This document shows positions 10,010 through 34,190 of a stretch of 46,100 nucleotides of DNA, piece after piece. Below the pieces are notes generated by a model. That model had not been told where the DNA came from, did not search any database, and was given only the letters and a program-made list of their open reading frames with translations. This DNA is from Halobellus clavatus (GTDB lineage: Archaea > Halobacteriota > Halobacteria > Halobacteriales > Haloferacaceae), in NCBI RefSeq assembly GCF_900107195.1, contig NZ_FNPB01000020.1, positions 1 through 46,100 of the forward strand. Reading direction: 5' to 3'. Made by a program: the position numbers and the translations under genes. How positions within the stretch are numbered: position 1 is the stretch's first letter; each line of letters starts with the position of its first letter.

Positions 10010-10520
10010 TGAGCAGGCGCGTATCCACCGCCTGAAGGCCGTGGATACGCGCCGTCATGCTGGGCAACAGCTGCCGTCTGACCGCTTGTGCCGAGTTTCC
10101 CACGCGGGAGTTTAAGTGACAGGCCGACCTACAAAAGAGTAGGAATCGGGTGGAACGGAGCGGATTCCGTCCCGTCCTTCGGAGGTGGCCTGTCCACCCC
10201 TGTAACGAGGTAATATCCGGAAGGGCAGGCAGTGAACGCACATGCTAGAAGCGTGTGCCCGTGCTGACTGCTCGTAGCGAACCCGAAGGTACCCCCAAAT
10301 CTGCCGACGCCTGCTGGCGTCCCCGTGGCAAAAACAACACCGGGACGCCATACACGGTCGAGGATAGGGGTAACGGCGGCTTGGCACCGCCAGCAGTCCA
10401 CCACACCGATGCTGTGGGACTACCCGTGCCCGAAAGGTGTGGTAGTCCAGTGATTGGACTGCGAACCTGAAACTCCCACCGCTCGGGATTCCTCCGCGTA
10501 AACGCGGAGGAGGATGTCAA
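10010..10520 (+). mobile_element. PATE-type non-autonomous element, copy 1 (about 510 bp)
   Basis: The left end has a long hairpin (GCGTATCCAC with GTGGATACGC, around 10021-10050) and the right end GGATTCCTCCGCG...CGCGGAGGAGGATGTCAA, ending TCAA at 10520. There is no credible protein inside. Copy 2 at 16309 aligns with it along its length, and copy 3 at 34020 with its right part. Near the right end are GGCGG-CTTGGCA-CCGCC (10375-10391) and GGACTACC/GGTAGTCC (10417-10448), whose stems differ in the other copies but keep pairing. This matches the palindrome-associated elements known from haloarchaea. The right end resembles that of the tnpB element at 39624, so the part from about 10365 may be a guide RNA scaffold with guide ACGCGGAGCGTGAGCAGTTT. 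Confidence 0.72.
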
Positions 10521-16308: not shown

Positions 16309-16824
16309 ATTATATGCGGAACAGGCGCAATACCACGGCCTTCAGGCCGTGGATACGCGCCGTCACTTAGTGACACGTTCCACCGACAATTGCAGAGCCG
16401 AGTTTCTAATCCATACGTTCAAGTGGCAAAAACCGCTATACCGTGGTACGGTCAGGTCGGAACGGAGCGGATTCCGAACGACCTTCGGAGGCGGCCAGCC
16501 CGCCACCCAATGAGACAATATCCGGAACGCCGACGTGGTGAACGCGAATCCCAGACAGGTTCGTCTTGTGCCCCGTCGGTCGAGCAAGCTTCAAGATACC
16601 TCCGAGTCCGGCGACGTGTCAGCGACTCCCTGCTGGCACAAACAACAGATGGGAGTCAACGACGCCGAGGATAGGAGTACCAGCCGCTTGGCACGGCTAG
16701 ACAGCCACCGACCACGACGACTGGGTTAGACGCGGACTCCCGTGAAGTGGCGGCGTCTATGGTTGCAGACCTGAAACTCCCACCGCTCGGGATTCCTCCG
16801 CGTGAACGCGGAGGAGGATGTCAA
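16309..16824 (+). mobile_element. PATE-type non-autonomous element, copy 2 (about 515 bp)
   Basis: It aligns with copy 1 (10010-10520). The left-end hairpin has the CCACGGCCTTCAGGCCGTGG core (about 16331-16350). Shared internal words include GGAACGGAGCGGATTCCG and AATATCCGGAA, and both end GCGGAGGAGGATGTCAA (here 16824). The RNA-like hairpins are AGCCG-CTTGGCA-CGGCT (16682-16698) and TAGACGC/GCGTCTA (16727-16759); their stems differ from copy 1 while pairing and loop are kept. There is no protein-coding potential. It lies directly next to a decayed tnpB of another type. A guide taken from the right flank would be TGGTGAGGCCTCTCCGGACT. Confidence 0.72.
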
Positions 16825-17431: not shown

Positions 17432-17513
17432 AACGGGAGTCCACGCGAAAGCCCTACCCTCAACGAGCGAGTGGGGCCATTGCCCCCGAGCGAAGTAGGG
17501 TAGAGTAGTTTAC
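17395..17513 (+). ncRNA. Omegarna-like 3' end and right end of the decayed tnpB element
   Basis: GCCTC/GAGGC (17414-17427) lies just before the conserved GGGAGTCCAC (17435-17444), as in the elements at 7299 and 28190, with a different but pairing stem. The right-end hairpin CTACCCT...AGGGTAG follows, and the element ends GTAGTTTAC at 17513. The last bases supply the TAA stop of the convergent regulator at 17510-17854. Since the neighbouring protein is dead, this RNA could only act with another TnpB. Confidence 0.4.
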
Positions 17514-17854
17514 TCACCGGCTGCGTTCAGCGCACTGTTCAACTCGAAAAGCTCCTGAACGGCATCGCTCTTGGCGACTCGATACCGGCGGGGTGACGAG
17601 TTCGCTACTTCCTCGACGATCTCGGTTTCTACCAGAAGGTCGATGTACTTGCTCACTGTCTGCCGGGTAACGCCAGCATGATCCGCGAGCTCCGTCTTGG
17701 TGAACTCTCGGCCCGGGGGGAGCGTGAGAATGGCGTCGATGAGGATTGGGACACTCTCGTGCTGAAAGAGATACAAGACACCGCTCGGATTCTCCAGGCG
17801 GGCCTCCTTGGTGTCCTTCTCCGCTGCTGGGTGTTTCTGAGGTGATTCGCTCAT
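17510..17854 (-). CDS. Winged-helix regulator
   Basis: The product has 114 residues from ATG 17854. The helix-turn-helix lies at about 45-80: TLPPGREFTKTELADHAGVT then RQTVSKYIDLLVETEIVEEV, followed by a wing SSPRRYRVAKSD. An N-terminal segment (VLYLFQHESVPILIDAIL) probably forms dimer contacts. It is divergent from the gene at 17949, and a perfect 16-bp palindrome lies between their promoters, so it probably represses itself and perhaps its neighbour. Its TAA stop is part of an insertion-sequence right end (17513), with no visible loss of the C-terminus beyond a few residues. Confidence 0.82.
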   Translation of the reverse strand: MSESPQKHPAAEKDTKEARLENPSGVLYLFQHESVPILIDAILTLPPGREFTKTELADHAGVTRQTVSKYIDLLVETEIVEEVANSSPRRYRVAKSDAVQELFELNSALNAAGE

Positions 17855-17897
17855 ACTGCTGGTTTACCGGTGATAACACATAACTGTTGTCCCGGGC

Positions 17898-17913
17898 GTT
17901 AATGCGCATTAAC
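17898..17913. promoter_or_regulatory. Palindromic operator between divergent genes
   Basis: GTTAATGCGCATTAAC is a perfect 16-bp palindrome. It lies 44 bases upstream of the regulator start (17854) and 36 bases upstream of the rightward start (17949), so it could control both promoters. Binding by the regulator encoded at 17510 is inferred. Confidence 0.6.
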
Positions 17914-17948
17914 ACACTCTTATCAAAGAGGCATAGAAAGAGGGGAAT

Positions 17949-18266
17949 ATGCGTAAGCCGTCGGTGAAATGTGCGCTCCTCGCAGCAATGATAGCCGAGC
18001 ATCGGTGGGGATCGCCTATCGTTGAAGAGAACCTCCTCTCTATTGCTGCTATCGAGACGAGTGACTACCCCACCGCCAGCGACGTCTTCGACGAGCTGCG
18101 GTCCAAGCCCTACATCACGAATCAAGGGAACCGAGGAATCGAACTCGACAACAGCGAGTTCGGTCACCTAGCCGATGTCCTCTACCACGAGTGCGACTGG
18201 GAACCGTTTGAGATCAAAAGCCGCCTGAAACACTACGAGGGCTGGGAAACCCACGACTGGGCGTGA
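17949..18266 (+). CDS. Conserved haloarchaeal protein of unknown function
   Basis: The product has 105 residues from ATG 17949 (MRKPSVKCALLAAMIAEHRW). The C-terminal half (IELDNSEFGHLADVLYHECD, then EPFEIKSRLKHYEGWETHDW) is the part I recall from other haloarchaeal proteins of this size. No function is known to me. It has no membrane segment and is mostly helical. It is transcribed divergently from a winged-helix regulator and shares the palindrome at 17898 with it. The 95 bases after it, before the next element, hold nothing I recognise. Confidence 0.72.
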   Translation: MRKPSVKCALLAAMIAEHRWGSPIVEENLLSIAAIETSDYPTASDVFDELRSKPYITNQGNRGIELDNSEFGHLADVLYHECDWEPFEIKSRLKHYEGWETHDWA

Positions 18267-18491
18267 CCGTGTTCAGACTTACGTAGGCAGATCGTACCCC
18301 CTCGTTTGAGTTCCCGGTGGGACGACTATAGCCCAACTGCGCGTGATCTACAGGCGGTTCGAGGCGAGTGCTTCGGGGCTTGACCCCGAGGGTGAAGCCG
18401 ACAGTGGCCGACCAGCCGCCGGGTTGTCTCTCCCGGCCCACAGGCTCACGGTATCGAAACGCTCACTTCGATCGAAACTGAATAGGTGTGT

Positions 18492-18626
18492 ATGGATCAG
18501 ACTGAGATGGAATGTTACCCGACTGTCCGTGACCGGGGACAGGTCACGATCCCCGAAGATGTGCGCGAACCACTCGGTATCGAACCGGGCGACCGAATCA
18601 AACTCACTGTCGAACGACTGGACTAA
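18492..18626 (+). CDS. AbrB/SpoVT-type DNA-binding protein, 44 residues
   Basis: ATG 18492 opens a 44-residue frame ending TAA 18626. The sequence TVRDRGQVTIPEDVREPLGI then EPGDRIKLTVERL is a complete swapped-hairpin AbrB/MazE motif (RGQVTIP..VRE.LGI.PGD.I). Such proteins bind DNA as dimers and often act as antitoxins or autorepressors. The gene lies wholly inside the IS boundaries and ends five bases before the tnpB start codon, so the two are almost certainly co-transcribed. A role in controlling tnpB or its RNA is an inference. It is below usual gene-calling length limits and easily missed. Confidence 0.75.
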   Translation: MDQTEMECYPTVRDRGQVTIPEDVREPLGIEPGDRIKLTVERLD

Positions 18627-18631
18627 CCCGC

Positions 18632-19864
18632 ATGGACGTAACGCTTCGCTGTCGTGCATATCCCGACGAGGAAACCGCCAGCGAAGCGTGGCGTCACATC
18701 GAAATCCATCGACAGATACGGAACCACGCCATCCGCGACTACTACTCACACGACGACGGAAACAGGCCAACCGCCTACGACCAGCACCGCAAACTCACCG
18801 ACTGGAAACAGCGGTGGCCGCTCTTTTCGGAAGTCTCGGCACACGCCGCTCAACAGACCGTTTCGGAGATACACAAGAACGTCGAGACGCAGAAGGGGCG
18901 GCGGAAAAACGGCCACAAAACGGGTCGATTGAAGTGGCAGGGAAGCGGCGAACGTCGGTCAGTCGCGTATCAGTCCGAAGGCTTCGACGTGAATCACACC
19001 ACGGGCCAAGACGGATACGCAACACTCCGCCTCTCAAAAATCGGCTACATCCCGATTCGAGCGCACCGAGAGCTTCCCGCGACAGAGAACATCAAGCGCG
19101 TCGTGTTGAAGAAGGAGCGAACCGGCGACTGGTTCGTGTGTCTCGTCACGGAACGCCCGGACGAGGACCTTCCCGAAAAGCCCGACCCCAGTACGCTCGA
19201 CCCTGTCGATTGCGTGGGCGTAGACCTCGGGATCCTCTCGTACATCCATACCAGCGACGATACGGCAGTAGATATGCTCGACCTGTCCGACGACTACGAC
19301 CGCTACGGGCGCGAACAGCGGAAACTCGACCGGAAAGAACACGGGTCGAACAACTGGGAGAAACAACGCCAGACTGTCGCCGCGGCGAAGCGGCAAATCA
19401 AACGGAAAGTGCTGGACTACCAGCACAAACTCACGACGTGGCTGGTTCGAGAGTACGATCTGGTGGCCGTCGAGGATCTGGACGTGAAGTCGATGCTGGA
19501 AACTAGCCAGAACGCCAAGACCAAGCAGGACGCTGCATGGTCACGGTTTCTGGACCTCTTGGAGTACAAAGCCGACCTGCATGGCACTCACGTCGTTCGA
19601 GTCGAACCAGCCGGAACCACGAAAGAGTGTTCGGAGTGCGGTGTGGAAACATCGAAACCACTCTGGATTCGAGAACATTCCTGTCCGGCGTGCGGTCACA
19701 CCGAGGACAGAGACCTGAACGCGGCAAAGAATATCCTCTCTCGCGGTCACGAGCAGATAGGGGCGGGACGCTCCGAATCAACGCCTGTGCAGACTGCGCT
19801 CTCTACGGGAACCAACTCGGTTCCTGCAAAGCGCGTCGTGGAAGCAGGAAGCCCCGAGGCTTGA
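18632..19864 (+). CDS. tnpB: TnpB RNA-guided nuclease
   Basis: The product has 410 residues from ATG 18632. Catalytic residues are Asp198 (CVGVDLGIL), Glu281 (LVAVEDLDV) and Asp361 (DRDLNAAKNI). The zinc finger is CSEC (about 333-336) with CPAC (about 351-354). The protein belongs to the branch of the TnpB at 965: both have RKEHGSNNWEKQ and end with a S..AKRV.EAGSP segment encoded by the same RNA-like structure. It is preceded by an AbrB-like gene in apparent operon. It looks active by motif and length. Confidence 0.95.
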   Translation: MDVTLRCRAYPDEETASEAWRHIEIHRQIRNHAIRDYYSHDDGNRPTAYDQHRKLTDWKQRWPLFSEVSAHAAQQTVSEIHKNVETQKGRRKNGHKTGRLKWQGSGERRSVAYQSEGFDVNHTTGQDGYATLRLSKIGYIPIRAHRELPATENIKRVVLKKERTGDWFVCLVTERPDEDLPEKPDPSTLDPVDCVGVDLGILSYIHTSDDTAVDMLDLSDDYDRYGREQRKLDRKEHGSNNWEKQRQTVAAAKRQIKRKVLDYQHKLTTWLVREYDLVAVEDLDVKSMLETSQNAKTKQDAAWSRFLDLLEYKADLHGTHVVRVEPAGTTKECSECGVETSKPLWIREHSCPACGHTEDRDLNAAKNILSRGHEQIGAGRSESTPVQTALSTGTNSVPAKRVVEAGSPEA

Positions 19865-19881
19865 CCTCGGGGTGGGTTCAC
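19745..19881 (+). ncRNA. Candidate omegaRNA of the tnpB element with AbrB gene
   Basis: GGGGC-GGGAC-GCTCC (19760-19774), GGAACC/GGTTCC (19808-19824), the words TCTGCAAAGCG and GAAGCAGGAAGCCC, then the right-end hairpin. These align in order with 2075-2224 and 5574-5750 while the stems change in compensating ways. The expected guide is AATGCCGATCATAACAGTCA from 19882. Confidence 0.5.
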
Positions 19882-20006
19882 AATGCCGATCATAACAGTC
19901 AGTTTCACATTACGAAAAGGCGGCTGCAGCCCGTGGTCTGTCGCGGAGCTGTCGGCTTCCTCTCCGGCTCGAAACCGCTGACTCGTTTCTCGGCTTACTC
20001 AGCTGC

Positions 20007-20444
20007 TTATCCCGGACGTGGCGCTTGTGCATACTTATCGATCTCGGGCGTGGTGTCCAGCCGCGTATACATATCCTGCAACGTCGCTTCAGCTCGTAAG
20101 AGGCCTGCCTCCGATAGCAACGCTCGTCCCTCCTCGGTCAGCCCGTAGAAGCGCCAGGGAAGATCACGTTGTCGACGGTCGTCGGGAAGCACCCGTTCCT
20201 CGACGATACCGTCCTCGATCAAGATCTCGAGATGCTCGCGGATCGTACTCTGGCTCTTGCTGGGGTTCACGTAGCTGAGTTCCTTGAGCGAGGGAAGCTG
20301 CTTCGGATGGGATAGGATATTCTGAATCAAAACGAAGCGGGTCTCCTGAGTGACGGTGTTGAGACGCTGGCGCTGAGTTTCAACGGTACTGTCTATCCCG
20401 GAGAGCGTCCGTGGCGTATCCGAGTTCGAGGGATCAGATGGCAT
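20007..20444 (-). CDS. Winged-helix transcriptional regulator
   Basis: The product has 145 residues from ATG 20444. A helix-turn-helix lies at about 30-85: TQETRFVLIQNILSHPKQLP, SLKELSYVNPSKSQSTIREH, LEILIEDGIVEERVL, then a wing (DDRRQRDLPWRFYGLTEEGR). The C-terminal helix may dimerise. The pattern fits haloarchaeal regulators of the ArsR/PadR fold class; the ligand is unknown. The region before it (19882-20006) holds no gene, and the 110 bases upstream of its start separate it from a DUF6788-like gene. Confidence 0.82.
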   Translation of the reverse strand: MPSDPSNSDTPRTLSGIDSTVETQRQRLNTVTQETRFVLIQNILSHPKQLPSLKELSYVNPSKSQSTIREHLEILIEDGIVEERVLPDDRRQRDLPWRFYGLTEEGRALLSEAGLLRAEATLQDMYTRLDTTPEIDKYAQAPRPG

Positions 20445-31835: not shown

Positions 31836-32000
31836 GTGAACCGCCTCGGGGTCAAGCCCCGAGACTTCCCGTGGATTAGTCGGACACTCCCATCCGACCA
31901 TCGGCAAGGTTTCCTCGAACGGTCGGGTGGGTCACGGTCGGGGCGTCCACGGCCCCCGATGCCTGCCGTCGCACCTTCCGCACTTGGGGAAGGCTGTTGA
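31836..32000 (-). ncRNA. Candidate omegaRNA of the tnpB element at 31836
   Basis: The 3' coding end carries TCGGGG/CCCCGA, CCTTCC/GGAAGG and CGACC/GGTCG pairings on the minus strand (about 31890-31985), followed by the right-end hairpin CTCGGGG-CTTGA-CCCCGAG and GGTTCAC at 31836. The guide would read GTTCAGTAACTCCGAGACAA. I have no second copy of this type to test the pairings, so the call is by analogy. Confidence 0.35.
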
Positions 32001-33162
32001 GAGCAGGCACATTCCAGTCCTGATGCTTCTCGATGCCTTTCACGGCGATGTTGACGCTTGCACCACGGTCGCTGTGGTCTTGATGCCCGCACGAGCGACA
32101 CTTGAACCGCTTCTTGTTGCGATTACCACGCTCCGTGTGTCCGCACATCGGACACCGCTGACTCGTGTACGCAGGGTCAATCCACGCGGTCGGGATTCCT
32201 TCGAATGACGCCTTGTACGACGTATAGAACTGGAGGGCGCGGAATGGAAGGTGGTGCAAACGCCGATTCATCCGCGTACCGTAGTCGATACTGTCGCGCA
32301 TCTCTTTGAGGTCTTCAAAGACGATGCACGGCGTCTCGAACTGACGGCTCCACTCCACGATATGACGGCTCACCTTGTGGAGTCGGTCGCGGACAAACCG
32401 TTCTTCCCGCCCTTCCAGAGTATCGTGAATACTGTTCTTCCCCGCGTTCTGCACGCGCTTCCGCATCGTGAAGTAGCGATGGCGCTCGAACTTGATTTCG
32501 GGAAAGTCGATGACTAGCGTGTCCTCGACGCCATTCTCGGAGAAAGCGGTGAGAGCCACATTATCCTCGTTCACATCGATGCCGATGACAGTTCGTGAGT
32601 CCTGCTTGTCTCGGACGGTCTGCTCGGTGTTGCGGATGTTGACGTGGAGTTCAGGGTCACCGTCCCGCCAGAGGGTTTCGCTGGTCGTGACCTTCCACTC
32701 GTCGCCTGTGAGCGCGGACTTCAGGAGGTCAAGATGGGCGTCACTTCCTTCGAGGATGCCCTTAATGTGATTGTAGGGCTTCGCGCTGATACGGAACGCC
32801 ACGTCGCCGTCGCTGGTGAGTGACAGGGTGTATCCCTCCGTGAAGTTCGCCCGAAGCGGGTACGGGCCGTTCTTAGTGTGGCTGGGTTTGCCGAAGTCGT
32901 CGTACTCGTAGTAGTTATCCATCGCGTCGAGTGCTTTGACGACGATGCGTTGAGTCGTGTTCTTCACGAGGTCGGCATCGTCTTCGAGGCGCGGAGAAAT
33001 CGCGTCCCAGTCCACGTCTTCCTTAGCGAGGCGGATGGTTTCGTTATACACTCGGCGGGCTTCAAGGGTGGCGTCATACAGCAGTCCCTCGTTGTCACTC
33101 TGGATATCTAATTGGAAATCCAGTGTCTTCACGAGGGTCTTGTTGTCCATTTTCTGGGGCAT
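31876..33162 (-). CDS. tnpB: TnpB RNA-guided nuclease
   Basis: The product has 428 residues from ATG 33162 (a second ATG at codon 5 is possible). Catalytic residues are Asp196 (VIGIDVNED), Glu283 (IVFEDLKEM) and Asp365 (QDHSDRGASVNI). The zinc finger is CPMC (337-340) with CRSC (355-358). It is a different branch from the TnpBs at 965 and 18632: the linker FERHRYFTMRKRVQNAGKNS and the helical DYGTRMNRRLHHLPFRALQF differ. The usual Asn after the last catalytic Asp-Arg is Gly (DRGAS). It is probably active; the change at that position deserves note. Confidence 0.94.
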   Translation of the reverse strand: MPQKMDNKTLVKTLDFQLDIQSDNEGLLYDATLEARRVYNETIRLAKEDVDWDAISPRLEDDADLVKNTTQRIVVKALDAMDNYYEYDDFGKPSHTKNGPYPLRANFTEGYTLSLTSDGDVAFRISAKPYNHIKGILEGSDAHLDLLKSALTGDEWKVTTSETLWRDGDPELHVNIRNTEQTVRDKQDSRTVIGIDVNEDNVALTAFSENGVEDTLVIDFPEIKFERHRYFTMRKRVQNAGKNSIHDTLEGREERFVRDRLHKVSRHIVEWSRQFETPCIVFEDLKEMRDSIDYGTRMNRRLHHLPFRALQFYTSYKASFEGIPTAWIDPAYTSQRCPMCGHTERGNRNKKRFKCRSCGHQDHSDRGASVNIAVKGIEKHQDWNVPALNSLPQVRKVRRQASGAVDAPTVTHPTVRGNLADGRMGVSD

Positions 33163-33913: not shown

Positions 33914-34019
33914 CGAACCTCCCCCCCTTTTTCGAGTTGTAAACTCGTGGCGTCGGGGAGGGCGGAAAACATCCGTCTCAACATCAATAGCGACGACGAT
34001 AGTGAAAGTAACTCCGAGT

Positions 34020-34190
34020 CTTCGCCTGTTTTGGGTGGGGATAGGAGTACCGGCTGGTTGGCACAGCCATCGGTCTACTTTCATGACCTCTCCCGAGGAT
34101 TCCAACCTCGGGCAGAGGTGGTGGACTGCAAACCTTAATATCCCAACTGCGGTCGGGATTCCTTCGCCTTCAGGCGGAGGAGGATGTCAA
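34020..34190 (+). mobile_element. PATE-type element, right part only (copy 3)
   Basis: It aligns with the last 150-170 bases of copies 1 and 2: GGGGATAGGAGTACC, then GGCTG-GTTGGCA-CAGCC (34052-34068), then a nested hairpin ACCTCT[CCCGAGG/CCTCGGG]AGAGGT (34086-34119), GGACTGCAAACCT, CGGGATTCC, and the right end GGCGGAGGAGGATGTCAA closing at 34190. The stems differ from both other copies yet pair. The left end is missing. Survival of just this portion next to a tnpB fragment fits a unit whose working part is the RNA and the right end. Expected guide: GCGCTTTGACGCCGACTGGA. Confidence 0.65.

What the first reader, a model, noticed from the sequence alone, without database searches (positions are those of the whole stretch)
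18492..19864. AbrB-like gene packaged with tnpB in one mobile element
A 44-residue AbrB/MazE-type gene ends five bases before tnpB and lies inside the element ends. Antitoxin-like DNA-binding proteins are not standard cargo of IS1341-type elements. It might repress tnpB or its RNA, limiting self-cutting, or form an addiction-like pair with the nuclease. The gene is short enough to be missed by routine annotation.
Basis: partly seen in the sequence, partly recalled or inferred. Interest (0 to 1): 0.65.

Follow-up and report, generated by a model that had tools for sequence, protein, structure and literature searches.

The report
Repressor gene packaged with TnpB nuclease
A small jumping gene of salt-loving archaea carries, just before its RNA-guided DNA-cutting enzyme TnpB, a tiny DNA-binding protein gene that related elements swap, promoter and all, for other small genes, so it is probably a built-in off-switch that keeps the cutter in check.

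Summary
A 44-aa AbrB/MazE-domain gene (18492-18626) ends five bases before an intact tnpB (18632-19864). Both lie inside one IS200/IS605-type element, 18352-19881. A plasmid of Natrinema pellirubrum holds the exact empty site (196/200 flank bases identical, no target duplication), so the pair moved as one unit. The pair is a conserved lineage: 25 of 391 sampled haloarchaeal genomes carry this AbrB, and 27 of 29 loci read have a tnpB directly behind it. AbrB dN/dS is about 0.12. The main new result is that close TnpB relatives carry unrelated small genes in the same slot (two ribbon-helix-helix-like families, or DUF2080). The slot gene changed at least 12 times on the TnpB tree; one AbrB clade is rejected (p 3e-7). 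Between types, element ends and tnpB stay alike, while promoter and small gene change together. Most types have their own repeat before the start codon; elements without a slot gene have none. Best reading: a swappable self-repressor/operator cassette that limits tnpB (and probably its guide RNA). Addiction is not supported: the protein lacks a toxin-binding tail, and tnpB persists without it. RefSeq already annotates the gene; no paper found describes the arrangement. DNA binding and repression are inferred.

The parts
18347..18351 (+). TCTAC, flanking target / TnpB recognition motif (TAM) left of the element, not part of it
   Evidence: Conserved TCTAC or TGTAC before the left end in unrelated sites; it stays at the empty site in pNATPE01
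18352..18403 (+). left end of the element with near-terminal palindrome (CGGGGCTTGACCCCG)
   Evidence: Identity to other copies starts here; empty-site junction
18453..18476 (+). candidate operator: ATCGAA repeated with 18-bp period (18453-18458, 18471-18476) between left end and abrB start
   Evidence: Repeat kept in the same position in 10 non-redundant relatives, as good in 6/300 column permutations; binding not shown
18492..18626 (+). abrB-type gene, 44 aa, MazE/AbrB DNA-binding domain alone
18632..19864 (+). tnpB, RNA-guided endonuclease, 410 aa; RuvC residues D198, E281, D361 kept
19840..19881 (+). right end with near-terminal palindrome, ends ...GGGTTCAC; overlaps the tnpB 3' end, where the guide RNA scaffold is expected
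   Evidence: Identity between copies stops after GTTCAC; empty-site junction; the RNA itself is inferred, no Rfam hit here
19882..19901 (+). expected guide: flank read just past the right end (AATGCCGATCATAACAGTCA)
   Evidence: Equals the sequence 3' of TCTAC at the empty site in pNATPE01; role inferred from TnpB biology

Best explanation
The element is a TnpB-only (IS1341-type) member of the IS200/IS605 family that carries its own small repressor. The 44-aa AbrB protein forms a dimer (inferred from the family) and binds repeats between the promoter and its own start codon. It thereby represses the abrB-tnpB operon, and with it the guide RNA made from the 3' end of the tnpB transcript. Low TnpB limits stray cutting. 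On arrival in a cell without repressor, a short burst of TnpB could favour homing (inferred). Promoter, operator and repressor gene form one cassette that related elements exchange for cassettes with other small, probably DNA-binding, proteins. Shown: the pair, its mobility as a unit, conservation, cassette exchange, type-specific repeats. Inferred: DNA binding, repression, guide-RNA control, burst on entry.
For: Conserved abrB-tnpB order with a 3-22 nt gap in most copies. dN/dS 0.12. Empty site. Other small genes in the same slot: RHH1-like, RHH2-like and DUF2080; both RHH-like families occur only before tnpB at high score. Twelve changes of slot gene on the TnpB tree; one AbrB clade rejected, p-AU 3e-7. 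In close relatives, left end, tnpB 5' part and right end are as alike across types (0.72, 0.82, 0.92) as within a type (0.70, 0.81, 0.91), while promoter (0.29 vs 0.53) and small gene (0.34 vs 0.76) change together. Anchored repeats: AbrB clade B 0/300, RHH2 0/300, RHH1 1/300, AbrB clade A 6/300; control elements without slot gene 174-175/300. Size and sequence match free-standing archaeal AbrB proteins 5itm and 2l66.
Against: The per-sequence repeat test without anchoring was not significant, and AbrB clade C shows no clear repeat (27/300). The RHH1 and RHH2 folds are not confirmed: no family hit, weak structure matches. Promoters are inferred from sequence. No expression or binding data exist for these genes. 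Relatives without any slot gene exist, so the repressor is not essential.
Confidence: 0.6

Rival explanations
1. Addiction pair: AbrB is an antitoxin that binds and neutralises TnpB, so losing the element frees the nuclease.
For: MazE-family domain, operon order antitoxin-then-toxin, short gap. A DUF2080 protein has been validated as an antitoxin of a nuclease toxin (PMC10440598).
Against: No C-terminal toxin-binding tail: the domain spans residues 11-41 of 44. Related TnpBs stand with no small gene (L066 and the L073-L117 group). Unrelated small proteins serve closely related TnpBs, hard to square with a specific protein-protein contact. One AbrB copy is kept without tnpB.
Confidence: 0.1
2. 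Transposition control: the small protein binds the element ends and helps or blocks excision by a TnpA supplied in trans.
For: It lies inside the element and close to the left end; AbrB and RHH proteins bind DNA (established knowledge of these families).
Against: Ends are as alike across slot types as within one type, while promoter-proximal DNA changes with the protein. A protein that reads the ends should covary with them.
Confidence: 0.1
3. The small ORF is mainly a leader for translational coupling that sets tnpB expression; its protein sequence matters little.
For: The stop lies 3-22 nt before the tnpB start in most copies.
Against: Strong purifying selection on the protein, known DNA-binding domain, and slot-type-specific repeats.
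Confidence: 0.1
4. Cargo or host-directed regulator: AbrB acts on host promoters or on rival elements, and tnpB only hitchhikes.
For: An AbrB-only copy between element ends exists (L123). Other AbrB proteins regulate host genes (established knowledge).
Against: The family is otherwise found only before tnpB or its remnants, and small gene and own promoter travel together.
Confidence: 0.1

Closest known systems
IS1341-type (TnpB-only) IS200/IS605 elements of haloarchaea (PMC3119063)
   Same: tnpB without tnpA, near-terminal palindromes, no inverted terminal repeats, no target duplication
   Different: A small DNA-binding protein gene sits inside the element before tnpB and is exchanged between elements; the passages of that paper read here do not mention such a gene
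DUF2080 family transposase-associated protein (NF033496 / PF09853)
   Same: About 50-aa gene directly before tnpB in archaeal elements, sometimes also with tnpA
   Different: Sequence unrelated to AbrB44 in profile comparison; much commoner (70 of 167 family genomes); no function reported in the papers found, except one DUF2080 antitoxin (PMC10440598)
MazE/AbrB type II antitoxins
   Same: Same DNA-binding domain (PF04014); autorepression of the operon is the likely shared trait
   Different: No toxin-binding tail, no toxin gene; partner is an RNA-guided nuclease in a mobile element
Free-standing archaeal AbrB proteins (PDB 5itm, 5itj, 2l66)
   Same: Single AbrB domain of 48-54 residues, best solved relatives (E 2e-5)
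   Different: Not known to me to be linked to TnpB elements
TldR (TnpB-derived repressors; from memory)
   Same: Transcription control linked to the TnpB family
   Different: There the dead TnpB is the repressor; here TnpB keeps its RuvC residues and is the presumed target of control

Membership tests
IS200/IS605 family, IS1341-type | TnpB with RuvC triad and zinc ribbon | tested here: met
   NF040570 E 2.5e-76, Cas12f1-like TNB domain; D198, E281, D361 invariant
IS200/IS605 family, IS1341-type | near-terminal palindromes, insertion 3' of a short motif, no target duplication | tested here: met
IS200/IS605 family, IS1341-type | no tnpA in the element | tested here: met
   Only abrB and tnpB reading frames are supported between 18352 and 19881
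IS200/IS605 family, IS1341-type | guide RNA from the 3' end | tested here: inconclusive
   Rfam sot families hit other elements of the window, not this one; the 3' end is strongly conserved
AbrB/MazE/SpoVT DNA-binding domain | PF04014 / TIGR01439 over curated cut-off | tested here: met
   35.6 bits vs 24.7; 37.5 vs 28.3
Type II toxin-antitoxin (MazE-like antitoxin) | C-terminal toxin-binding segment | tested here: not met
   Domain covers residues 11-41 of 44
Type II toxin-antitoxin (MazE-like antitoxin) | partner toxic without it | not testable with these tools
   Related tnpB exist without small gene, which argues against
DUF2080 transposase-associated proteins | sequence match to NF033496 | tested here: not met
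   Not among the hits of the window protein; profile comparison probability 0.6%
Autorepressor | binds own promoter and lowers transcription | not testable with these tools
   Indirect: type-specific repeats and cassette exchange

The most novel reading that the evidence does not exclude
Haloarchaeal TnpB homing elements carry exchangeable promoter-operator-repressor cassettes built on unrelated small DNA-binding proteins. The cassettes set copy number and could define immunity groups, as in temperate phages: the resident repressor blocks a newcomer of the same type, and a naive cell gives a burst of TnpB.
Probability: 0.3. Interest if true: 0.82.

Novelty: new variant of a known kind. Interest (0 to 1): 0.62.

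Why it matters
TnpB is the ancestor of Cas12, and how its elements keep a self-cutting nuclease in check is not settled. A 2011 study of haloarchaea noted that many distinct TnpB elements coexist, each apparently under stringent copy number control, without naming a cause in the passages read (PMC3119063). A dedicated, swappable repressor cassette would be such a cause and is directly testable with a 44-aa protein and a 50-bp promoter.

Tried and rejected
Unanchored inverted- and direct-repeat test per sequence: not significant; an anchored test was then tried and repeated with a control set. It was chosen after the sequences had been looked at, so it is not blind. Profile comparison of AbrB44 with DUF2080, and of RHH1 with RHH2: no link. 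Structures of RHH1/RHH2 from shallow alignments: mean pLDDT about 71; Foldseek gave only weak matches for RHH2 (VapB, CopG, AtaR, NikR among them, all E above 1) and none for RHH1. Viral and phage collections: no AbrB44. Literature: no paper found that links AbrB or a ribbon-helix-helix protein to TnpB; only open-access PMC papers were searched. The first tree held a frameshifted row (L042); it was rebuilt without it.

Full report
Observation. The window holds a 44-aa ORF at 18492-18626 (+) and a 410-aa tnpB at 18632-19864. The small protein is an AbrB/MazE-type domain (PF04014 8.7e-9; TIGR01439 1.4e-9), and the large one is an RNA-guided TnpB (NF040570 2.5e-76) with a complete RuvC triad. The window's own genome has one copy of this AbrB; the other TnpB matches in that genome lie elsewhere, without it.

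Element limits. Near-identical copies elsewhere agree from AGGCGG after TCTAC up to GTTCAC. The plasmid pNATPE01 of Natrinema pellirubrum holds the unoccupied site...GCGTGATCTAC|AATGCCGATC..., 196 of 200 bases identical to the joined window flanks. The element is therefore 18352-19881, 1530 bp, inserted 3' of TCTAC without target duplication (the junction is ambiguous by a base or two of shared sequence). The AbrB gene moved with tnpB. The flank just past the right end, the expected guide, equals the target sequence at that empty site, as known TnpB biology predicts.

Conservation. Of 391 haloarchaeal genomes, 25 carry this AbrB at E 1e-8 or better; 27 of 29 loci read have a tnpB directly downstream, and the two exceptions (both in genome G226) are weaker matches. 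A profile search in the window's family separates this AbrB (most hits above 80 bits, fragments and remnants 54-70) from ordinary chromosomal AbrBs (below 39 bits). It was not found outside haloarchaea in a phylum sample, nor in viral or phage collections. Genome G129 carries five copies of the AbrB, each with an intact TnpB of this clade directly behind it, so the pair multiplies together. Median dN/dS of AbrB is 0.12. RefSeq names the pair AbrB/MazE/SpoVT protein and TnpB on plasmids of Halorientalis and Halobellus.

A slot with exchangeable genes. Of the 80 nearest TnpB loci, only part carry AbrB. Several others have a different small gene that ends 0-6 nt before tnpB: RHH1 (MSKRYTVTVPDEDGEWLDDQPHLSPSGLLQKAIQEQREKEESD), RHH2 (MEERHLRVDLTDEDKQRAKEYAEAHGLRMPRAYGDLIRAGLDNED) or DUF2080. 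The RHH labels rest on the beta-alpha-alpha sequence pattern; no family hit and only weak fold matches support them. RHH1 and RHH2 proteins at high score occur only before tnpB, apart from contig ends. On a TnpB tree of 44 rows the slot gene needs 12 changes, AbrB against the rest 9, and the AU test rejects a single AbrB clade (p 3e-7). Sister or near-sister TnpBs differ in slot gene, for example L069 (AbrB) and L070 (RHH1), or L056 (AbrB) and L062 (RHH1).

What is exchanged. In nine close relatives, within-type and cross-type identities are: left end 0.70 and 0.72; first 300 nt of tnpB 0.81 and 0.82; right end 0.91 and 0.92; promoter region 0.53 and 0.29; small gene 0.76 and 0.34. The unit that moves is therefore the stretch from the end of the left-end palindrome to the tnpB start, promoter included.

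Candidate operators. With sequences anchored at the start codon or TATA box and columns permuted as null, repeats were found in AbrB clade B (CAGTAT, 10-bp period, 0/300), RHH2 (TGCTAAC, 12-bp period, 0/300), RHH1 (ACACG-N8-CGTGT, 1/300) and AbrB clade A, the window's own (ATCGAA, 18-bp period, 6/300). AbrB clade C was weak (27/300). Elements without a slot gene gave nothing (174-175/300). An unanchored per-sequence test did not reach significance, and ten set-by-kind tests were made, so the window's own repeat taken alone is weak and the comparative case carries the weight.

Mechanism. Joint exchange of promoter and small gene, with ends and nuclease unchanged, fits autorepression best. It argues against end binding, since ends do not follow the protein, and against a specific antitoxin contact, since unrelated proteins serve closely related TnpBs. 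The AbrB protein has no tail beyond its DNA-binding domain and matches free-standing archaeal AbrB proteins of known structure. Guide RNA in related haloarchaeal elements is thought to be processed from the tnpB transcript (PMC8303175; PMC12558985), so operon repression would lower it too; that step is inferred.

Orphan AbrB. L123 holds left end, intact AbrB and a right-end-like palindrome with GTTCAC but no tnpB. Part of its right half resembles other elements, so it may be a recombinant remnant. It is a single case.

Prior knowledge. DUF2080 is already called a transposase-associated protein, and one DUF2080 protein was validated as an antitoxin (PMC10440598). No paper found links AbrB or ribbon-helix-helix proteins to TnpB elements; the search covered open-access papers only. 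The arrangement is best filed as a new variant of the IS1341-type elements.

Noticed in passing
window 34006-34181 (+), 16594-16815 (+), 10332-10511 (+), 31890-32012 (-): Matches to TnpB-associated sense overlapping RNAs (three sot0042, one sot2652): the window holds remnants or copies of several other TnpB elements; only 34006-34181 passes the Rfam cut-off.
   Followed up: no
window 17510-20294: 98% and 97% identical to Natrinema pellirubrum plasmid pNATPE01 on the two sides of the element: this part is shared plasmid backbone.
   Followed up: partly
L123:1402-1730: AbrB gene between element ends without tnpB, perhaps a mini-element or recombinant remnant.
   Followed up: partly
L176:5356-7229: In the plasmid with the empty site, a DUF2080 gene sits two bases before a TnpB-like gene, about 500 bases from the empty site.
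   Followed up: partly
L168:1501-1709 (minus strand): Two tandem copies of the RHH2-like motif before one broken tnpB.
   Followed up: no
L181:1477-1835: DUF2080 with tnpB behind it and a divergent tnpA-like frame: a full IS605-type element with a slot gene.
   Followed up: no
L161-L167: 55-aa distant relatives of RHH2 (about 50% identity) with no TnpB of this clade nearby, possible free-living relatives of the slot protein.
   Followed up: no
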